Assembly: GCF_009909615.1 (NCBI RefSeq)
Contig: NZ_WWNE01000012.1
Span: 124,001 to 188,000, forward strand
Length of the DNA stretch: 64,000 nucleotides
Direction: 5' to 3'
From: Acidiluteibacter ferrifornacis
Lineage (GTDB): Bacteria > Bacteroidota > Bacteroidia > Flavobacteriales_E > Vicingaceae
Position 1 is the stretch's first letter; each line of letters starts with the position of its first letter. The notes beneath the pieces were generated by a model that saw only the letters and a list, made by a program, of their open reading frames with translations, had not been told where the DNA came from and searched no databases. Shown piece after piece: positions 22,342 through 28,289 of the stretch. Both the position numbers and the translations under genes were made by a program.

Positions 22342-22349
22342 TAACTTTG
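22342..22349 (+). promoter_or_regulatory. -7 element (TAnnTTTG) just before the His-rich protein gene
   Basis: TAACTTTG matches the -7 consensus and ends 6 bp before ATG 22356, so the transcript would be nearly leaderless. A TTG that could be read as a start at 22347 lies inside this box. No convincing -33 element was found. Confidence 0.45.
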
Positions 22350-22355
22350 AGTAAA

Positions 22356-22673
22356 ATGATTTTGTACCTTAGATTAATAGCTTATTTCTTATTGCTGATT
22401 TTTTCAGTGGTGCTATTTCCTGCGAGTACATTTCATCACCATGACTTAACTCACGATACTCACTTTTTTGATGATTCGAATGGTTTAATATCTGATCACG
22501 TTTTCGAAAGTTGTGATTTCTGTTCAGTTGTTATACCTCACTTCCTTAAGGTAGAAAATAAGATTGATGGAGTTGTTAACCTACTGTATTCTAAACTTCT
22601 TTTAAGAGAAGTTACTTCATTCAAACACTTACAGTTTTCAGCTTATCTTTTAAGAGGCCCACCAATCGTTTAA
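22356..22673 (+). CDS. Small His/Cys-bearing membrane or periplasmic protein (DUF2946-like)
   Basis: 105 aa from ATG 22356. An N-terminal hydrophobic segment (~1-22) is followed by a metal-ligand-rich part: FHHHDLTHDTHFFDD, then CDFC around residue 60, and a C-terminal RGPP. This arrangement (His cluster, CxxC, Arg-Gly-Pro-Pro end) is typical of small proteins encoded just upstream of metal-uptake TonB receptors in Bacteroidota and resembles the DUF2946 group. A role in sensing or binding zinc or copper is inferred from residues and position, not shown. A TTG 9 bp upstream was rejected as start because it falls in a -7 element. Confidence 0.7.
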   Translation: MILYLRLIAYFLLLIFSVVLFPASTFHHHDLTHDTHFFDDSNGLISDHVFESCDFCSVVIPHFLKVENKIDGVVNLLYSKLLLREVTSFKHLQFSAYLLRGPPIV

Positions 22674-22714
22674 GGTAATATCTAGTTTTTAGTTATTAAT
22701 TTAAAGGATATAAA

Positions 22715-25051
22715 TTGAATTTAAAGCCATTTTTAACCCTTTTGGTCAATTTGGTATTTGTTCCTTTTATCTATTCTCAATCTTCTGATCCAAGTTGTCA
22801 ATCAATATTGATGGGGAAAGTTATGGATGAACATGATCATTCAGATTTATCCTATTCAACAATTTATGTGATTGAAAATGAAATAGGTGTGTCTGCCAAT
22901 TTCGAAGGAGAATATAGAATTGAGAATTTGTGTATCGGAACTTATCACATTATTATTAGTCATATTGGTTGCGCGCCTGATACGGTGGTTGTTGATATTA
23001 ATTCAAATTTGATTCTTCAAAATTTTGAATTGGAACATCATGCAGAAGAATTGAGCGAAGTAGAAATTATATCATTCAAAAGAAGGAAGCATGGTGTTAT
23101 TAGTCAAGATGTAAACCCGTCTGAAAATCAAGAAGTCATGCAGTCTATAGCTTCAGTAGCTGCGACCTTGAATGGTGTGACTATGCTTCAAAGTGGTGCA
23201 AATGTTACCAAGCCGATAATTCACGGATTACATAGTAATCGTGTGGCAATTGTCAATAATGGGCTAACATTAGAAGGTCAAAATTGGGGAGAAGAGCATG
23301 CTCCTGAAATAGACCCATTTACTATTGCAGACTTAAAAGTGGTGAAGGGAGCTAGTGCAATGAAGTATGGAGCAGGTGCGATAGGAGGAGCATTGATATC
23401 TGTTCCTAAAAAACTTCCGGATTCTTCAGGTGTAAATGGTTTGATTTTTTTAGGTGCTAGTAGTAACAATAAAAAAGGAGTTGGTTCAATGCGACTAGAA
23501 GGTCAATTTGAAAGTTTACCCCATTTTAGTTGGGCCTTACAAGGCAGTTTAAAGAAAAGTGGGAGTATACGTACACCCAATTATTATTTGAATAATACTG
23601 GATCTGAAGAATATAATTATTCCTGGCATTTAGGTTATCAAAAGAAGCGATTGAAAACAGAAATGTATTACAGTCAAGTGAATAATAACATTGGAATTTT
23701 TTCAGGAGCACATATAGGCAACTTGACTGATCTTGAAGATGCAATCAATCGAGATGCTCCGAGAGAGGAAGACCAAGGCAGTTTTTCTTATTCAATTGAT
23801 AGACCATATCAGCATGTTGAACATGAAACAATTCAATGGAAAACGAACTATCAACTGAATGATTCTAGTTCATTAGAGCTTCAGCTTTCTCGTCAGTTTA
23901 ATATCCGAGAAGAATATGATAAGCACTTATCAAGAGGGATATCTGAAGAGGAAGAAGGCTATCCAGAATTTGCAGTAAATTTGGAAACTTATCAAGCTCA
24001 ACTGGCTTGGAAATTTCCATTTTTGAAACAATTCAAAACTGAGATCGGAGGGAAGTTTCAAACGCAAGAAAATGTTTTGAAAGGAAGTCGGAGTTTTATT
24101 CCTTCTTACAATGGTCGCTCCATCGGAGGGTATATAGTTTCCAACTTGAGAAAGGATATTTGGAACGTCAATAGTGGTTTTAGGTTTGATTATAATGCAC
24201 TAGATGTTGATAGATATATTAACCGAGCGTATCAAATCGATAAGGTAAAGTTTACAACGGTTTCTGGAAGTATAGAAGTCGATCGAATTATATCTGAGAA
24301 GTGGACCGGAGGTGTCAATGCTACTTTTGCACAGCGGGCTCCAGGGATTAATGAACTGTATAGCTCTGGTTTGCATCATGGGGTAGCAGCACTAGAATAT
24401 GGGGATGAAAATCTAATGGTTGAATCGTCATATAAGTTTTCTGCTTCTGCCATTTATCAAACTAGTCAGTGGACTTTCGATGCATTAGCTTATACCAATT
24501 GGATTCAGAACTTTATTTATTTACAACCGGATGGAACTGCACTGACAGTAAGAGGAGCTTTTCCTGTATTTCAGTATAAACAAGTGGATGCAACTTTGAA
24601 CGGATTAGATCTATCTTTAAATTATGACTTCAATAAAGCGATTTCCTTTTATTCAAAATCAAGTTTATTGTGGGCACAAAATAGATCGATAGATGAACCT
24701 CTTATTTTCATGCCTTCCAATCGTATAGATTTCGGCTTTAATTACCGATTTCTAAAGATGTGGAAAAAGGTTAATCCATCATTTGGAGCAGGATTAAATC
24801 ATGTCTTCGAACAAAATAGAGTTCCTGAGGGAGTTGATTTTACTGAAGCACCTGAGGCATATACTTTAATACAATTAAAAGGAGGGTTAGAAATTCCCTT
24901 TGAAAAACAAACTATAAAACTAGATATTGCGATCAATAATGTTTTAAATACCGTTTATCGGGATTATATGAATCGTTTTAGGTACTACGCCGATGAAATG
25001 GGCAGAAATGTTACATTGAGTCTAAAAGTGCCATTTACATTAATGAAATAA
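22715..25051 (+). CDS. TonB-dependent outer-membrane receptor, ZnuD-like
   Basis: 778 aa. Signal peptide (LLVNLVFVPFIYSQ), then a carboxypeptidase-regulatory-like domain (~25-105: LMGKVMDEHDHSDLSYSTIYV), a plug (~110-225) and a 22-strand-type barrel to the end. The plug section NVTKPIIHGLHSNRVAIVNNGLTLEGQNWGEEHAPEID matches the class of receptors related to zinc-uptake ZnuD. Translation must start at TTG 22715, as no ATG gives the signal peptide. It lies 41 bp after the His-rich gene and 11 bp before a lipoprotein gene: probably one metal-uptake operon. The substrate (zinc, copper or a chelate) is inferred. Confidence 0.85.
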   Translation: MNLKPFLTLLVNLVFVPFIYSQSSDPSCQSILMGKVMDEHDHSDLSYSTIYVIENEIGVSANFEGEYRIENLCIGTYHIIISHIGCAPDTVVVDINSNLILQNFELEHHAEELSEVEIISFKRRKHGVISQDVNPSENQEVMQSIASVAATLNGVTMLQSGANVTKPIIHGLHSNRVAIVNNGLTLEGQNWGEEHAPEIDPFTIADLKVVKGASAMKYGAGAIGGALISVPKKLPDSSGVNGLIFLGASSNNKKGVGSMRLEGQFESLPHFSWALQGSLKKSGSIRTPNYYLNNTGSEEYNYSWHLGYQKKRLKTEMYYSQVNNNIGIFSGAHIGNLTDLEDAINRDAPREEDQGSFSYSIDRPYQHVEHETIQWKTNYQLNDSSSLELQLSRQFNIREEYDKHLSRGISEEEEGYPEFAVNLETYQAQLAWKFPFLKQFKTEIGGKFQTQENVLKGSRSFIPSYNGRSIGGYIVSNLRKDIWNVNSGFRFDYNALDVDRYINRAYQIDKVKFTTVSGSIEVDRIISEKWTGGVNATFAQRAPGINELYSSGLHHGVAALEYGDENLMVESSYKFSASAIYQTSQWTFDALAYTNWIQNFIYLQPDGTALTVRGAFPVFQYKQVDATLNGLDLSLNYDFNKAISFYSKSSLLWAQNRSIDEPLIFMPSNRIDFGFNYRFLKMWKKVNPSFGAGLNHVFEQNRVPEGVDFTEAPEAYTLIQLKGGLEIPFEKQTIKLDIAINNVLNTVYRDYMNRFRYYADEMGRNVTLSLKVPFTLMK

Positions 25052-25062
25052 AATTTTAAAGA

Positions 25063-25641
25063 ATGAAATCAATTTATAAAAAAATCAGTTTACCAATAAT
25101 CCTAAGTTTATTAATAGCAACAGCGATTATCGGCTGTAAAAAAGATGATGATGATCAGCCTCGTTTAGTCGAGAATGAGGAAGAATTGATTACCTCGGTT
25201 TTTGTGAATTACAAGGATTCATCAACATCTATAAATGAAGTAGCAAAATTTAGAGATCCAGATGGTGAAGGAGGAAATGATCCTATACAGTTTGATACTA
25301 TTCGTTTAACCAAAGGGAAGACATATGAAGTGAGTGTTGAATTTCTTGATGAAAGTAATCCTTTAGATATAGAAGATATTACAGAGGAAGTGAGAGAAGA
25401 AGGCGCAGAGCATTTCATTTGTTTTGAAGTCGATGTTAATAGCGGAGTTACTATCACTAAAACGGATTCAGATGGTCAATATCCAATAGGATTAACTTCA
25501 GAATGGATGACCGATCTAACAGCTATGCCTTTCAATGGGACATTAAAACTAATTTTAAAACACCAGCCAGATGTTAAAGATGGTACTTGTGCTCCTGGAG
25601 ATACAGATGTAGAAATTAATTTTCCGTTAATAATTAATTAA
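25063..25641 (+). CDS. Lipoprotein accompanying the TonB receptor
   Basis: 192 aa. A signal peptide ends in lipobox IIGCKKDDDDQP, so it is membrane-anchored with an acidic stretch after the lipidated Cys. The remainder is beta-rich with many Asp/Glu (DPDGEGGNDPIQFDTIRL) and three Cys/His candidates near the end (HFICFE, HQPDVKDGTCAPGD). Homologues downstream of ZnuD-like receptors are often annotated 'type 1 periplasmic binding fold superfamily protein'. It may capture or hand over the metal (inference). It is the last gene of the operon; a terminator follows 20 bp later. Confidence 0.75.
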   Translation: MKSIYKKISLPIILSLLIATAIIGCKKDDDDQPRLVENEEELITSVFVNYKDSSTSINEVAKFRDPDGEGGNDPIQFDTIRLTKGKTYEVSVEFLDESNPLDIEDITEEVREEGAEHFICFEVDVNSGVTITKTDSDGQYPIGLTSEWMTDLTAMPFNGTLKLILKHQPDVKDGTCAPGDTDVEINFPLIIN

Positions 25642-25660
25642 CCAAAAATTAGATAGTTAT

Positions 25661-25690
25661 AAAAAAGGGAGGCGTTAGCCTCCTTTTTTT
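25661..25690 (+). terminator. Intrinsic terminator of the metal-uptake operon
   Basis: AAAAAAGGGAGGC - GTTA - GCCTCCTTTTTTT: a GC-rich stem with a T-run on the plus strand and an A-run on the other side. It begins 20 bp after the lipoprotein stop. Confidence 0.9.
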
Positions 25691-25756
25691 ATGTTTTCTA
25701 TTGTAATTTTAATGTTATCTTTCAATAATAATTAACCTATAAGAATACTTACCAAT

Positions 25757-25915
25757 ATGAGATTACTTAAAATTTTAGTTCTTGCGACTGCTCTAATTGC
25801 CGGACCAATCATTTTAAATTCATGTAGTTCTAATAAAAATACACATTCAAGGGTGAAGTCTAAAAGTGGGATGGGAAATCCTAAAGATAGAAACAACGGT
25901 GTTTGGGGGAGATAA
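25757..25915 (+). CDS. Very small lipoprotein (52 aa)
   Basis: 52 codons from ATG 25757 to TAA 25913-25915. A hydrophobic signal segment (LKILVLATALIAGPIILNSC) ends in a lipobox with Cys24, then a basic, Gly/Asn-rich mature part of only ~29 residues containing RVKSKSGMGNPKDRNNGVWGR. The next gene encodes a similar mini-lipoprotein with the same SCSSxK start and a RSSSKM-type motif. No known family recognised. It follows the operon terminator and lies 4 bp before its sibling, so they form a two-gene transcript of their own. The hydrophobic segment, lipobox and shared motif argue against chance. Confidence 0.68.
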   Translation: MRLLKILVLATALIAGPIILNSCSSNKNTHSRVKSKSGMGNPKDRNNGVWGR

Positions 25916-25919
25916 AGAA

Positions 25920-26036
25920 ATGATGAAAAAAGGATTCGTATATTTTATGTTGTTGTTGTCGTTGGCATTCGTTTTCCAGTCTTGCAGCAGTAGTAAAAAA
26001 GGTCAAAAGGTTAGGTCAAGCAGCAAAATGTATTAA
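25920..26036 (+). CDS. Very small lipoprotein (38 aa), sibling of the preceding one
   Basis: 38 codons from ATG 25920 (a second ATG follows at once) to TAA 26034-26036. A signal segment (VYFMLLLSLAFVFQSC) with a lipobox, then just ~16 residues: CSSSKKGQKVRSSSKMY. The mature peptide is strongly basic and repeats the pattern of its 52-aa neighbour (CSSxK...KVRSxSKM versus RVKSKSGM). It could be a lipid-anchored peptide or a lysis/entericidin-like peptide; function unknown. The stop is 6 bp from the convergent serine-protease stop. Confidence 0.62.
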   Translation: MMKKGFVYFMLLLSLAFVFQSCSSSKKGQKVRSSSKMY

Positions 26037-26042
26037 CATAAC

Positions 26043-28289
26043 TTACTGCTTGATTATCTTTTCGGTTTGTTTTCCATTTTTAGTAGTTACTGTGAGGAAA
26101 TAGATTGATGGTTTTAAACCCTGTAAATCTACTGTAGCGGTTGGTGATTGCTCATTATAGTATATTACTCGTCCACTAATATCTGTTAACAGTATGGATT
26201 GTATCGTGTTACTATCCTTTAATTTTATTTCTACTTTATCTTTAGTTGGATTTGGAAAAATTGAAAAGTAATTTTTATTGTCAAAATCATTTAAAGAGGT
26301 AGTTGAGTCAGTGATACAAAATTTATATGACTTACTTGATGAAGCAAAACTAGTTTCATACAGAATGGTATCTAGTCCATTATTCATAGTAATTAAAGTA
26401 TATCCTTGACCAAACCCACAACAATAACCATCATTTCCGATATCTTTTAGGTTTAAGGTATAGCAGCCAGGAGAAAAGCAATAATCGTAATGAAAAACAT
26501 TACCTCCACTATTGTTTACAAACGATCCATTGTTATACAAGGTGTATTGATTAGTCGAATCTTTGATAATGTAGCTCAGTTCAGAGCCATAATCATCTGT
26601 TTTAAACTCAAAGCTAACTGTATAATTGGGGATAAAGCCAACTACACTGGCAGTTAACGTATTATTGATGACATTCTGATCCGACGCAGTATTTATACTT
26701 CCCACATTAATCGATAAGGTATTAATTCCTTTATTAAAAATTATAGGTGGAAGATTGAATGTAGAAACCTCATTTCTCAATAAAGTGTCTGAAATAAATA
26801 CTGTTACAGGGGTGTTGTTGTTTAAAGTATATATTAGCTCGAAATTAAAAATAGTATCGTTCCCTCTATTGGATAAAAGGATAGATTGGGTACCTGGATT
26901 TCCACACTGATAGTAGGTTTGTCCTTCAAAATTTAATAATTCAATGTCCCTATCAAAAGCAGCAGGGTTGGGGTCATATCCATTTAATACTTTGGTGTTG
27001 GTACCGTTTGGATCTAACCATGCTTTAAGCTGTTTACTGGCAGCGGACTGATAATCCCATGATTTATCAAACTTACCATAAAAGTCAGGTTCATCATTTC
27101 CACAAGCAGCTCTGCCACCATGTAATTGACCAACTATTCTATGACTTTCATTATACAAAGGAGATCCAGATGAGACTGTTTGTGTAGTTCCTAGATCCCA
27201 ATCGGAAACTTCCCAATGACCGTTTGTTAAGGTGGCTACTGAATATTTTGCTGATTTCAAGGTGTCAAAATCTATTGCGATCTTTTTTACATCACCTCGA
27301 GCATGGTGAATTCCTGTGGCATTTTTTGGTGTTCGACCTGTAGCATCCCAGCCTGAATAAAACACATTGTAGGATGCTGGAGGAGTAGAAGATAATTCAA
27401 ACAATGAGAAGTCTGTTTCATAATTATTCGCTCTTAAAGTCGATCCAACAATGGATTGGCTCAGGCTTCCATCTGTTCGTGGTGAGCAGTTCGCACTTTC
27501 ATAATTAAATATAAAAATAGAAGATGCAGCATCAAGTCCGCAATGCGAAGCGGTTAAAATATATGGTTTTCCATCTTGTTGAACATTATTAACCAAAGCA
27601 CCACTGCACCATCTAGAGTTATTAGATTTTAAGATCAATACAACACTACGTTTTTCATTTTGCCACAGATTCCCTTCGTTACAATTAATATCGATATTAC
27701 AGCTAGCCGCATTCCCAAAATCTGCAGCTTTATCAATTAAGCTTCTGTATCCATAAACGATTGAAGAAATAACAACATTAGAGGCCACTTTTTGACCTTG
27801 AGGTTCTAAAACTTCAACGATAGCAGACTTTCCTTTAGTCAGTGTTGTTGCAAAATCACCTTTGTCTTTATTATTTTCACTTGTAAAAGCACCTATAGTT
27901 TCTGTAAAATCTTCATTATGTATAAATAGTCGGGTACCTTCGGCTAGTTCAAAAGAAGAATAGTTCAAATTGATACTAATTGCATCATTAGAATTAATCA
28001 ATAAGCGATAGCGTTTTGTCCCGTCTGGTAAAGTTTTTTGAGATGCTACTTGAAAGAAGTCTATGTTGACATCTTCAACTGCACCAAATCTCCATGGAAT
28101 ATCTTTATAGTTATCCGTAATTTCGTCCTCGGCTTTTAGTGCCGCTATGTTAGGCTGATTCAATTGCACAGTAAAAATAGTTTCTGATTGACCCTCAGTA
28201 TCTAAAGTGTATGGATATGGGCCATAACTGATTTGTGAAATGGCTATTTTGAAAATGAATATTAAAAAAGTGGATAGAAAAGCTTTCAT
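26043..28289 (-). CDS. Secreted trypsin-like serine protease with T9SS sorting domain
   Basis: 748 aa. Signal peptide (FLIFIFKIAIS), a propeptide to ~200, then an S1-type protease domain related to lysyl endopeptidase. His249 (LTASHCG), Asp293 (ETDFSLFEL) and Ser374 (TVSSGSPLY) form the triad; the usual GDSGGP is replaced by VSSGSP. Cys pairs (NIDINC, WCSGAL, SHCG, ANCSP, RAACG) suggest several disulfides. A CARDB-like beta domain (~460-555) and a further beta domain precede the C-terminal type IX sorting domain (YFSIFPNPTKDKVEIKL ... GKQTEKIIKQ). The protein is thus exported through T9SS and probably cell-surface or released. Transcribed alone. Confidence 0.9.
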   Translation of the reverse strand: MKAFLSTFLIFIFKIAISQISYGPYPYTLDTEGQSETIFTVQLNQPNIAALKAEDEITDNYKDIPWRFGAVEDVNIDFFQVASQKTLPDGTKRYRLLINSNDAISINLNYSSFELAEGTRLFIHNEDFTETIGAFTSENNKDKGDFATTLTKGKSAIVEVLEPQGQKVASNVVISSIVYGYRSLIDKAADFGNAASCNIDINCNEGNLWQNEKRSVVLILKSNNSRWCSGALVNNVQQDGKPYILTASHCGLDAASSIFIFNYESANCSPRTDGSLSQSIVGSTLRANNYETDFSLFELSSTPPASYNVFYSGWDATGRTPKNATGIHHARGDVKKIAIDFDTLKSAKYSVATLTNGHWEVSDWDLGTTQTVSSGSPLYNESHRIVGQLHGGRAACGNDEPDFYGKFDKSWDYQSAASKQLKAWLDPNGTNTKVLNGYDPNPAAFDRDIELLNFEGQTYYQCGNPGTQSILLSNRGNDTIFNFELIYTLNNNTPVTVFISDTLLRNEVSTFNLPPIIFNKGINTLSINVGSINTASDQNVINNTLTASVVGFIPNYTVSFEFKTDDYGSELSYIIKDSTNQYTLYNNGSFVNNSGGNVFHYDYCFSPGCYTLNLKDIGNDGYCCGFGQGYTLITMNNGLDTILYETSFASSSKSYKFCITDSTTSLNDFDNKNYFSIFPNPTKDKVEIKLKDSNTIQSILLTDISGRVIYYNEQSPTATVDLQGLKPSIYFLTVTTKNGKQTEKIIKQ

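What the first reader, a model, noticed from the sequence alone, without database searches (positions are those of the whole stretch)
25757..26036. Twin micro-lipoproteins of 52 and 38 aa sharing a basic Ser/Lys motif
Both have a lipobox and an SCSSxK start and end with short cationic tails (RVKSKSGMG and KVRSSSKMY). They lie 4 bp apart, after a terminator, and are too short for routine gene calling. Possible roles include entericidin-like peptides, envelope spacers or T9SS/gliding accessories; none is shown.
Basis: seen in the sequence. Interest (0 to 1): 0.52.

Follow-up and report, generated by a model that had tools for sequence, protein, structure and literature searches.

The report
Paired tiny envelope lipoproteins in Flavobacteriales
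Two overlooked genes of 52 and 38 codons encode related tiny, probably lipid-anchored peptides; the longer one occurs once in most searched genomes of one bacterial family, with a nearly unchanging tail of about 20 residues, which suggests a core but still unknown job inside the cell envelope.

Summary
ORF1 (25757-25915, 52 aa) and ORF2 (25920-26036, 38 aa) lie 4 nt apart behind a strong terminator; both have a signal peptide and lipobox. Those features alone are at chance level (3 such short ORFs in the window, 2.45 per shuffled window). Conservation decides. ORF1 has one match in 39 of 46 genomes of its GTDB family, its own included, and none in 394 other genomes of the phylum. Four of the seven misses carry a variant with another tail; the other three are incomplete assemblies.
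The C-terminal 20-mer ([KR]V.S..G.GN.K.KN.HVWG) has one length in 30 of 30 and pN 0.076 against pS 0.586 in same-genus pairs, so the protein itself is selected. ORF2 is a paralogue (mature-only profiles: probability 91%, E 9e-7), found beside ORF1 in 9 genomes and probably decayed in the sister species. Linkage to a T9SS protease is old but not required. No Pfam or NCBIfam model passes its cut-off and PDB shows no believable relative.
Best mechanism (inferred): periplasm-facing outer-membrane micro-lipoproteins whose tail docks on an envelope machine, working like LptM. Entericidin-like and Lpp-like readings are disfavoured.

The parts
25757..25915 (+). ORF1, 52-aa micro-lipoprotein: signal peptide 1-22 (by eye), lipobox LNSC, Cys23, basic linker 24-31, conserved tail 32-52 (RVKSKSGMGNPKDRNNGVWGR)
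25920..26036 (+). ORF2, 38-aa micro-lipoprotein paralogue: signal peptide, lipobox FQSC, Cys22, tail KVRSSSKMY
25658..25693 (+). Intrinsic terminator between the upstream lipoprotein gene and ORF1
25714..25722 (+). TTATCTTTC, identical in the same-genus genome G001; tentative promoter element, not tested further
   Evidence: alignment of two genomes only
25063..25641 (+). Neighbour c1: 192-aa lipoprotein, predicted beta-sandwich, with an acidic lipoprotein export signal (CKKDDDD); a c1 gene lies upstream of ORF1 on the same strand in much of the family
26043..28289 (-). Neighbour c0: trypsin-like protease with T9SS sorting domain, convergent with ORF1/ORF2; probable ancestral neighbour, not required

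Best explanation
ORF1 and ORF2 are translated micro-lipoproteins. The signal peptide is removed at the lipobox and Cys is acylated. Because positions +2 to +6 are neutral or basic, they are not flipped to the surface and stay on the periplasmic side of the outer membrane (inferred). A variable basic linker positions a conserved linear motif, in ORF1 [KR]V.S..G.GN.K.KN.HVWG[KR], which docks on an envelope machine and stabilises or gates it, in the way LptM works on LptDE (inferred). ORF2 is a tandem duplicate with a shortened, re-ended tail (KV.S..KMY), perhaps modulating the same partner; it is absent in many lineages. Shown here: coding status by conservation, family-wide single-copy presence, purifying selection concentrated in the tail, paralogy, and lack of an acidic export signal. 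Not shown: expression, lipidation, location, partner.
For: ORF1 has one match in each of 39 of 46 family genomes (own included), all at E <= 1.4e-9. Tail pN 0.076 against pS 0.586 summed over same-genus pairs. Within one gene, G000 against G001: tail pN/pS 0.04/0.73, linker 0.44/0.67, signal 0.28/0.57. Invariant columns are C, G, N, V, W and G, none of them charged, while K, R and H replace each other at several positions. An acidic residue at +2 to +6 in 1 of 26 ORF1 and 0 of 6 ORF2 proteins, against all 12 c1 neighbours printed (read by eye; 2 of the 14 members of the c1 cluster were not printed, and L038 has only one such residue, at +6); surface export in this phylum needs an overall negative signal (PMC5080379, passages). 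Paralogy: with negative controls. The tail is predicted as coil without a partner. LptM precedent: PMC10567701, abstract.
Against: No partner identified. A family-restricted distribution (0 of 394 other genomes of the phylum at E <= 0.001) is odd if the partner is a universal machine, unless the subunit is a lineage-specific accessory. Three family genomes (G326, G328, G008) keep the basic core but lack the VWGK end, and G015 extends it, so the end is not indispensable. Neutral or basic residues after Cys do not prove outer-membrane location. The structure model has low confidence (mean pLDDT 60).
Confidence: 0.4

Rival explanations
1. Non-covalent tether or spacer: the lipidated end sits in the outer membrane and the cationic tail binds an anionic polymer (peptidoglycan, or phosphates of LPS and phospholipid), stiffening or spacing the envelope.
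For: Net charge of the mature peptide +6 to +11 in 26 of 26 ORF1 relatives and +3 to +8 in 6 of 6 ORF2 relatives; no acidic export signal; presence independent of neighbours.
Against: The invariant columns are uncharged (C, G, N, V, W, G) while charged ones exchange. The mature peptide is only 28-38 aa. The window's ORF1 ends in Arg, so an Lpp-like covalent link through a terminal Lys is not possible there.
Confidence: 0.25
2. Specific partner of a locus neighbour: chaperone, inhibitor or immunity peptide for the convergent T9SS trypsin-like protease c0, or accessory of the c1 surface lipoprotein.
For: Same contig and starts within 3.5 kb of c0 in 22 of 39 ORF1 genomes. Two genomes without the VWGK end (G326, G328) keep a variant at the same place, and G011 keeps an ORF2-type gene there. 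The pairing also occurs in G066 of another GTDB family.
Against: 8 of 39 ORF1 genomes have no c0 at E <= 1e-20, including all four of genus g5 (95-100% complete); some of the other four may be assembly gaps. 9 more have c0 elsewhere. No such micro-lipoprotein seen beside c0 in other-family loci by pattern scan and eye: 20 loci of 19 genomes fetched, of which L278 was 246 bases and L271 ended 42 bases past c0; whether those proteases are orthologues of c0 was not tested.
Confidence: 0.1
3. Accessory of the type 9 secretion or gliding machinery.
For: Bacteroidota setting; a T9SS-sorted neighbour; lipoproteins are common T9SS parts (recalled).
Against: None of the 10 neighbouring proteins scanned is a T9SS machine part (other neighbours were not scanned). 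T9SS is widespread in the phylum (recalled) while ORF1 was found in one family only.
Confidence: 0.1
4. Entericidin-like lytic/antidote pair.
For: Tandem paralogous small cationic lipoproteins resemble the ecnA/ecnB layout (recalled).
Against: No entericidin model among Pfam or NCBIfam hits. ORF1 is in 39 of 46 genomes while ORF2 lies beside it in 9. Coil, not helix, predicted for the tail (low confidence).
Confidence: 0.05
5. Chance ORFs, or an RNA element read as protein.
For: Lipobox plus signal in short ORFs is at chance level.
Against: pN/pS about 0.13 with one tail length in 30 sequences; no Rfam match above gathering score; ORF2 tails conserved too.
Confidence: 0.01

Closest known systems
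LptM (YifL), enterobacterial small lipoprotein of the LPS translocon
   Same: Lipoprotein conserved in one bacterial family; precedent for a small lipoprotein as a docking subunit of an outer-membrane machine (PMC10567701, abstract)
   Different: No sequence relation claimed or tested; here the conserved part is the C-terminal tail; partner unknown
Entericidins EcnA/EcnB
   Same: Tandem paralogous lipoproteins of about 40-50 aa (recalled)
   Different: No profile match; nearly universal single gene with an optional second copy; coil tail
Lpp (Braun lipoprotein)
   Same: Small outer-membrane lipoprotein with a basic C-terminus (recalled)
   Different: Mature length 28-38 aa, no helix predicted in the tail, terminal residue Arg in the window genome
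PG1828 family lipoprotein (NCBIfam NF050142, 59 aa)
   Same: Short Bacteroidota lipoprotein; weak hit to ORF2 (E 0.022, 15.5 bits)
   Different: Far below the curated cut-off of 50 bits
KTPMG micro-lipoproteins (unnamed, seen here)
   Same: About 40-aa lipoproteins in genomes of the same family, with a basic tail and fixed C-terminus
   Different: A second conserved Cys; no profile relation to ORF1 or ORF2 (probability about 3%)

Membership tests
Bacterial lipoprotein (general kind) | N-terminal signal peptide with lipobox and Cys | tested here: met
   LNSC and FQSC in the window; Cys invariant in 26 of 26 aligned ORF1 and 5 of 5 aligned ORF2 proteins. Lipidation itself not testable here.
Surface-exposed Bacteroidota lipoprotein | Acidic lipoprotein export signal at +2 to +6 | tested here: not met
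   1 of 26 ORF1 and 0 of 6 ORF2 proteins have any acidic residue there; rule from PMC5080379, passages
Entericidin | Match to an entericidin profile in Pfam or NCBIfam (that both hold one is recalled) | tested here: not met
   Pfam: 0 families at E <= 0.01 for 26 of 26 ORF1 proteins. NCBIfam: three other families match 3, 2 and 1 of the 26 (best E 0.0008), none entericidin. Window ORF1 and ORF2 at E <= 1: only weak other hits, all below cut-off
Entericidin | Lytic activity and antidote pairing | not testable with these tools
   Only layout examined: ORF2 beside ORF1 in 9 of 46 genomes
Lpp | Long helical mature chain ending in Lys for linkage to peptidoglycan (recalled) | tested here: not met
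   28-38 aa mature chain, coil in a low-confidence model; of the 26 aligned ends 23 are VWGK, 2 VWGR (window and G019), 1 extended (G015)
LptM | Binding to LptD/LptE | not testable with these tools
   No interaction data; no complex prediction on hand
T9SS component | Co-occurrence or linkage with T9SS machine genes | tested here: inconclusive
   The neighbour is a T9SS-sorted protein, not a machine part, and is not required for ORF1; linkage to machine genes was examined only for the 10 neighbours scanned

The most novel reading that the evidence does not exclude
Bacteroidota carry a hidden layer of ultrashort periplasm-facing lipoproteins: in this one bacterial family at least three apparently distinct families (VWGK/KMY as here, KTPMG, and CKSxxKCAAYS), each with a short conserved tail, acting as lineage-specific plugs or clamps on outer-membrane machines. 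Only the first was shown to be single-copy, and only the KTPMG family was tested for, and found without, relation to it.
Probability: 0.25. Interest if true: 0.72.

Novelty: new variant of a known kind. Interest (0 to 1): 0.47.

Why it matters
A gene kept once in nearly every searched genome of a bacterial family, with a tail more conserved than its neighbours, yet matched by no profile library searched here, points to a missing envelope component. The roughly 21-residue motif is short enough to be made as a peptide and used directly as bait, so the partner question is experimentally simple.

Tried and rejected
Protease partnership: c0 lies near ORF1 in many genomes and beside a related gene in one genome of another family, so I searched c0 in 174 genomes and fetched the 3' flank of 20 other-family hits from 19 genomes. 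A pattern scan and a look by eye showed no micro-lipoprotein of this kind (L278 was 246 bases, L271 ended 42 bases past c0), and ORF1 occurs without c0, so the link was demoted.

KTPMG family as a relative: similar look, but profile comparison gave about 3% probability; rejected as homologue.

Wider distribution: full-length profile hits outside the family look mostly like signal peptides of other proteins. I inspected 11 loci, 10 of them outside the family; only G066 looked related, while L072 and L074 are micro-lipoproteins of other types. In some searches only about 21-22 candidates per genome were scored, so weak relatives may have been missed. The mature-only phylum search scored all or nearly all candidates in the genomes it listed.

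PDB: single-sequence search gave nothing. The profile search gave a whole-sequence E of 1.2e-5 to a designed repeat protein, Scone-R, which comes from summing repeats (best single stretch E 88) and was rejected. Rfam: 7 hits at E <= 1, all below gathering score, all overlapping the terminator. Fold search for neighbour c1: no match at E <= 0.001. Sigma-70-type promoter scan at chance (2 found, 2.4 expected). The ORF2 remnant in G001 is only suggestive (16 of 1000 shuffles reach the score).

Literature: seven searches (one search returned no paper) listed no paper whose title or abstract start describes this family; most subscription papers and all bioRxiv preprints are outside the library. PMC12611786 was seen in passages, PMC5080379 in passages, PMC10567701 as outline and abstract.

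Full report
Observation. The window holds two adjacent short frames, ORF1 (25757-25915, 52 aa) and ORF2 (25920-26036, 38 aa), 4 nt apart on the plus strand, behind a strong intrinsic terminator at 25658-25693 and convergent with a 748-aa protease gene at 26043-28289. Both have a signal peptide and lipobox followed by CSSNK or CSSSK. A crude scan shows that a short ORF with signal and lipobox is a chance-level event in this window (3 found, 2.45 per shuffled window), so conservation had to decide.

ORF1 is a conserved gene. A single-sequence search found matches in 37 of 60 genomes (own included) at E <= 1, the weakest of them not trustworthy. A profile of mature parts only, so that signal peptides cannot contribute, found exactly one match in each of 39 of 46 genomes of the GTDB family (own included), worst E 1.4e-9, and in 30 of the 32 good-quality ones. 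The same profile found nothing but the window's own gene in 395 genomes of the phylum at E <= 0.001. A scan of named genomes returned 18 loci, titled Vicingaceae, Flavobacteriales, Bacteroidia or Bacteroidetes MAGs and, once, Verrucomicrobia; the window's own record may be left out there.

The seven misses are informative. G326 and G328 hold a clear variant beside c0 with the end rewritten (GGKKIKSNGSMGRDRYKKRYKHKID and GGKRISSKESMRR), and G011 holds an ORF2-type gene there. G008 holds a variant elsewhere. The other three are incomplete: G002 (69%), G329 (72%; its contig starts inside c0, so the neighbour is not assembled) and G035 (87%, about 430 contigs; its genus g4 keeps ORF1 away from c0, and I did not look for that place). 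So 43 of 46 genomes carry some member.

Selection is on the protein. The C-terminal 20 residues have one length in 30 of 30 sequences (the pattern used would have allowed one shorter form). Same-genus pairs sum to pN 0.076 against pS 0.586; all pairs to pN 0.237 against pS 0.710. Pairs are not independent, and two genera, g9 and g13, are looser (pN up to 0.27). Within the gene the contrast is sharp between the window and G001: tail 19 of 21 residues identical (pN 0.04, pS 0.73), linker 3 of 9 (0.44, 0.67), signal 11 of 22 (0.28, 0.57). Over the same pair the matched part of the protease is 66% identical and c1 56%. Invariant columns are Cys, G, N, V, W and G.

ORF2 is a paralogue. Mature-only profiles of ORF1 and ORF2 match with probability 91% and E 9.4e-7 over 21 columns; against the KTPMG profile each gives about 3%. 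ORF2 lies beside ORF1 in nine genomes, G000, G004, G007, G010, G016, G020, G027, G323 and G330; G323 and G330 were not in the model that found them. Gaps are -4, 4, and 30 to 65 nt. ORF2 tails of G027, G323 and G330 show pN 0.05-0.12 against pS 0.39-0.89, and the 9-residue core over seven genomes pN 0.25 against pS 0.97. In G001 the equivalent gap has no such frame and only a suggestive remnant. Against this: the mature ORF1 profile alone did not recover ORF2 in the window's genome at E <= 0.01, whereas the full-length one, signal peptide included, did at 1.3e-7.

Setting. In much of the family the order is an M1-type peptidase (name recalled), c1 lipoprotein, ORF1, sometimes ORF2, and the convergent protease c0; in five loci of one subclade ORF1 lies between nadB and a GAPDH gene. 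c0 is near ORF1 in 22 of 39 genomes, elsewhere in 9 and not found in 8, among them all four genomes of genus g5. In G330 both ORF1 and ORF2 persist with another gene in place of c0. G066, of another GTDB family, carries an ORF2-like gene (KVNSMDRM) convergent with its c0; it was first found at E 8.0e-4. The neighbourhood is therefore old, but the gene does not depend on it.

Location and mechanism. Surface lipoproteins of this phylum carry acidic residues right after the Cys (PMC5080379, passages). The 12 c1 neighbours printed all have at least one at +2 to +6 (read by eye; two further members of the cluster were not printed), but only 1 of 26 ORF1 and 0 of 6 ORF2 proteins do. I infer that ORF1 and ORF2 stay on the periplasmic side. 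The mature ORF1 peptide is 28-38 aa with net charge +6 to +11 and is modelled as coil after the signal helix (mean pLDDT 60). A peptide too short to fold, with an uncharged sequence motif under strong selection, most simply docks on something. LptM (PMC10567701, abstract) is the nearest working model. I give the docking reading 0.4 and a polymer-binding tether 0.25. That ORF1 is a protein-coding gene I hold at above 0.95.

Known families. For the window's two ORFs no Pfam or NCBIfam model passes its cut-off. Over 26 relatives Pfam gave none at E <= 0.01, and NCBIfam three families matching 3, 2 and 1 members (best E 0.0008), which I take as signal-peptide matches. PDB holds no believable relative, and Rfam none above gathering. 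Entericidin and Lpp membership fail on tested features. Seven literature searches listed nothing on it, with limited coverage.

Noticed in passing
L117, L126, L138-L162 and others; L078-L085 in other families: KTPMG micro-lipoproteins, about 40 aa, ending ..KC.G.RGIKTPMG.M, in genus g13 often downstream of a gene that looks like pdxJ (name recalled, not scanned); another unnamed conserved family.
   Followed up: partly
L183 (G000:C19:134428-134508); L178, L180-L182, L184, L186, L187, L191: A third micro-lipoprotein type, CKSxxKCAAYSK, in the window's own genome and eight of the relatives fetched.
   Followed up: no
L167, L189: Micro-lipoproteins ending CPKFGKH or CPKWGNH.
   Followed up: no
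22347-25641: A 108-aa His-rich protein, a TonB-dependent receptor with sub-cut-off hits to hemin and ZnuD receptors, and lipoprotein c1 may form a metal or heme uptake cluster.
   Followed up: partly
L038 (PAVT01000057.1): A record titled Verrucomicrobia bacterium carries ORF1 with the usual neighbourhood; its contig length equals that of G003:C57, which is in the window's GTDB family, so the title looks wrong.
   Followed up: no
25063-25641: The c1 family falls into two groups, and L034 and L037 carry two copies in tandem; predicted beta-sandwich without a confident PDB match.
   Followed up: partly
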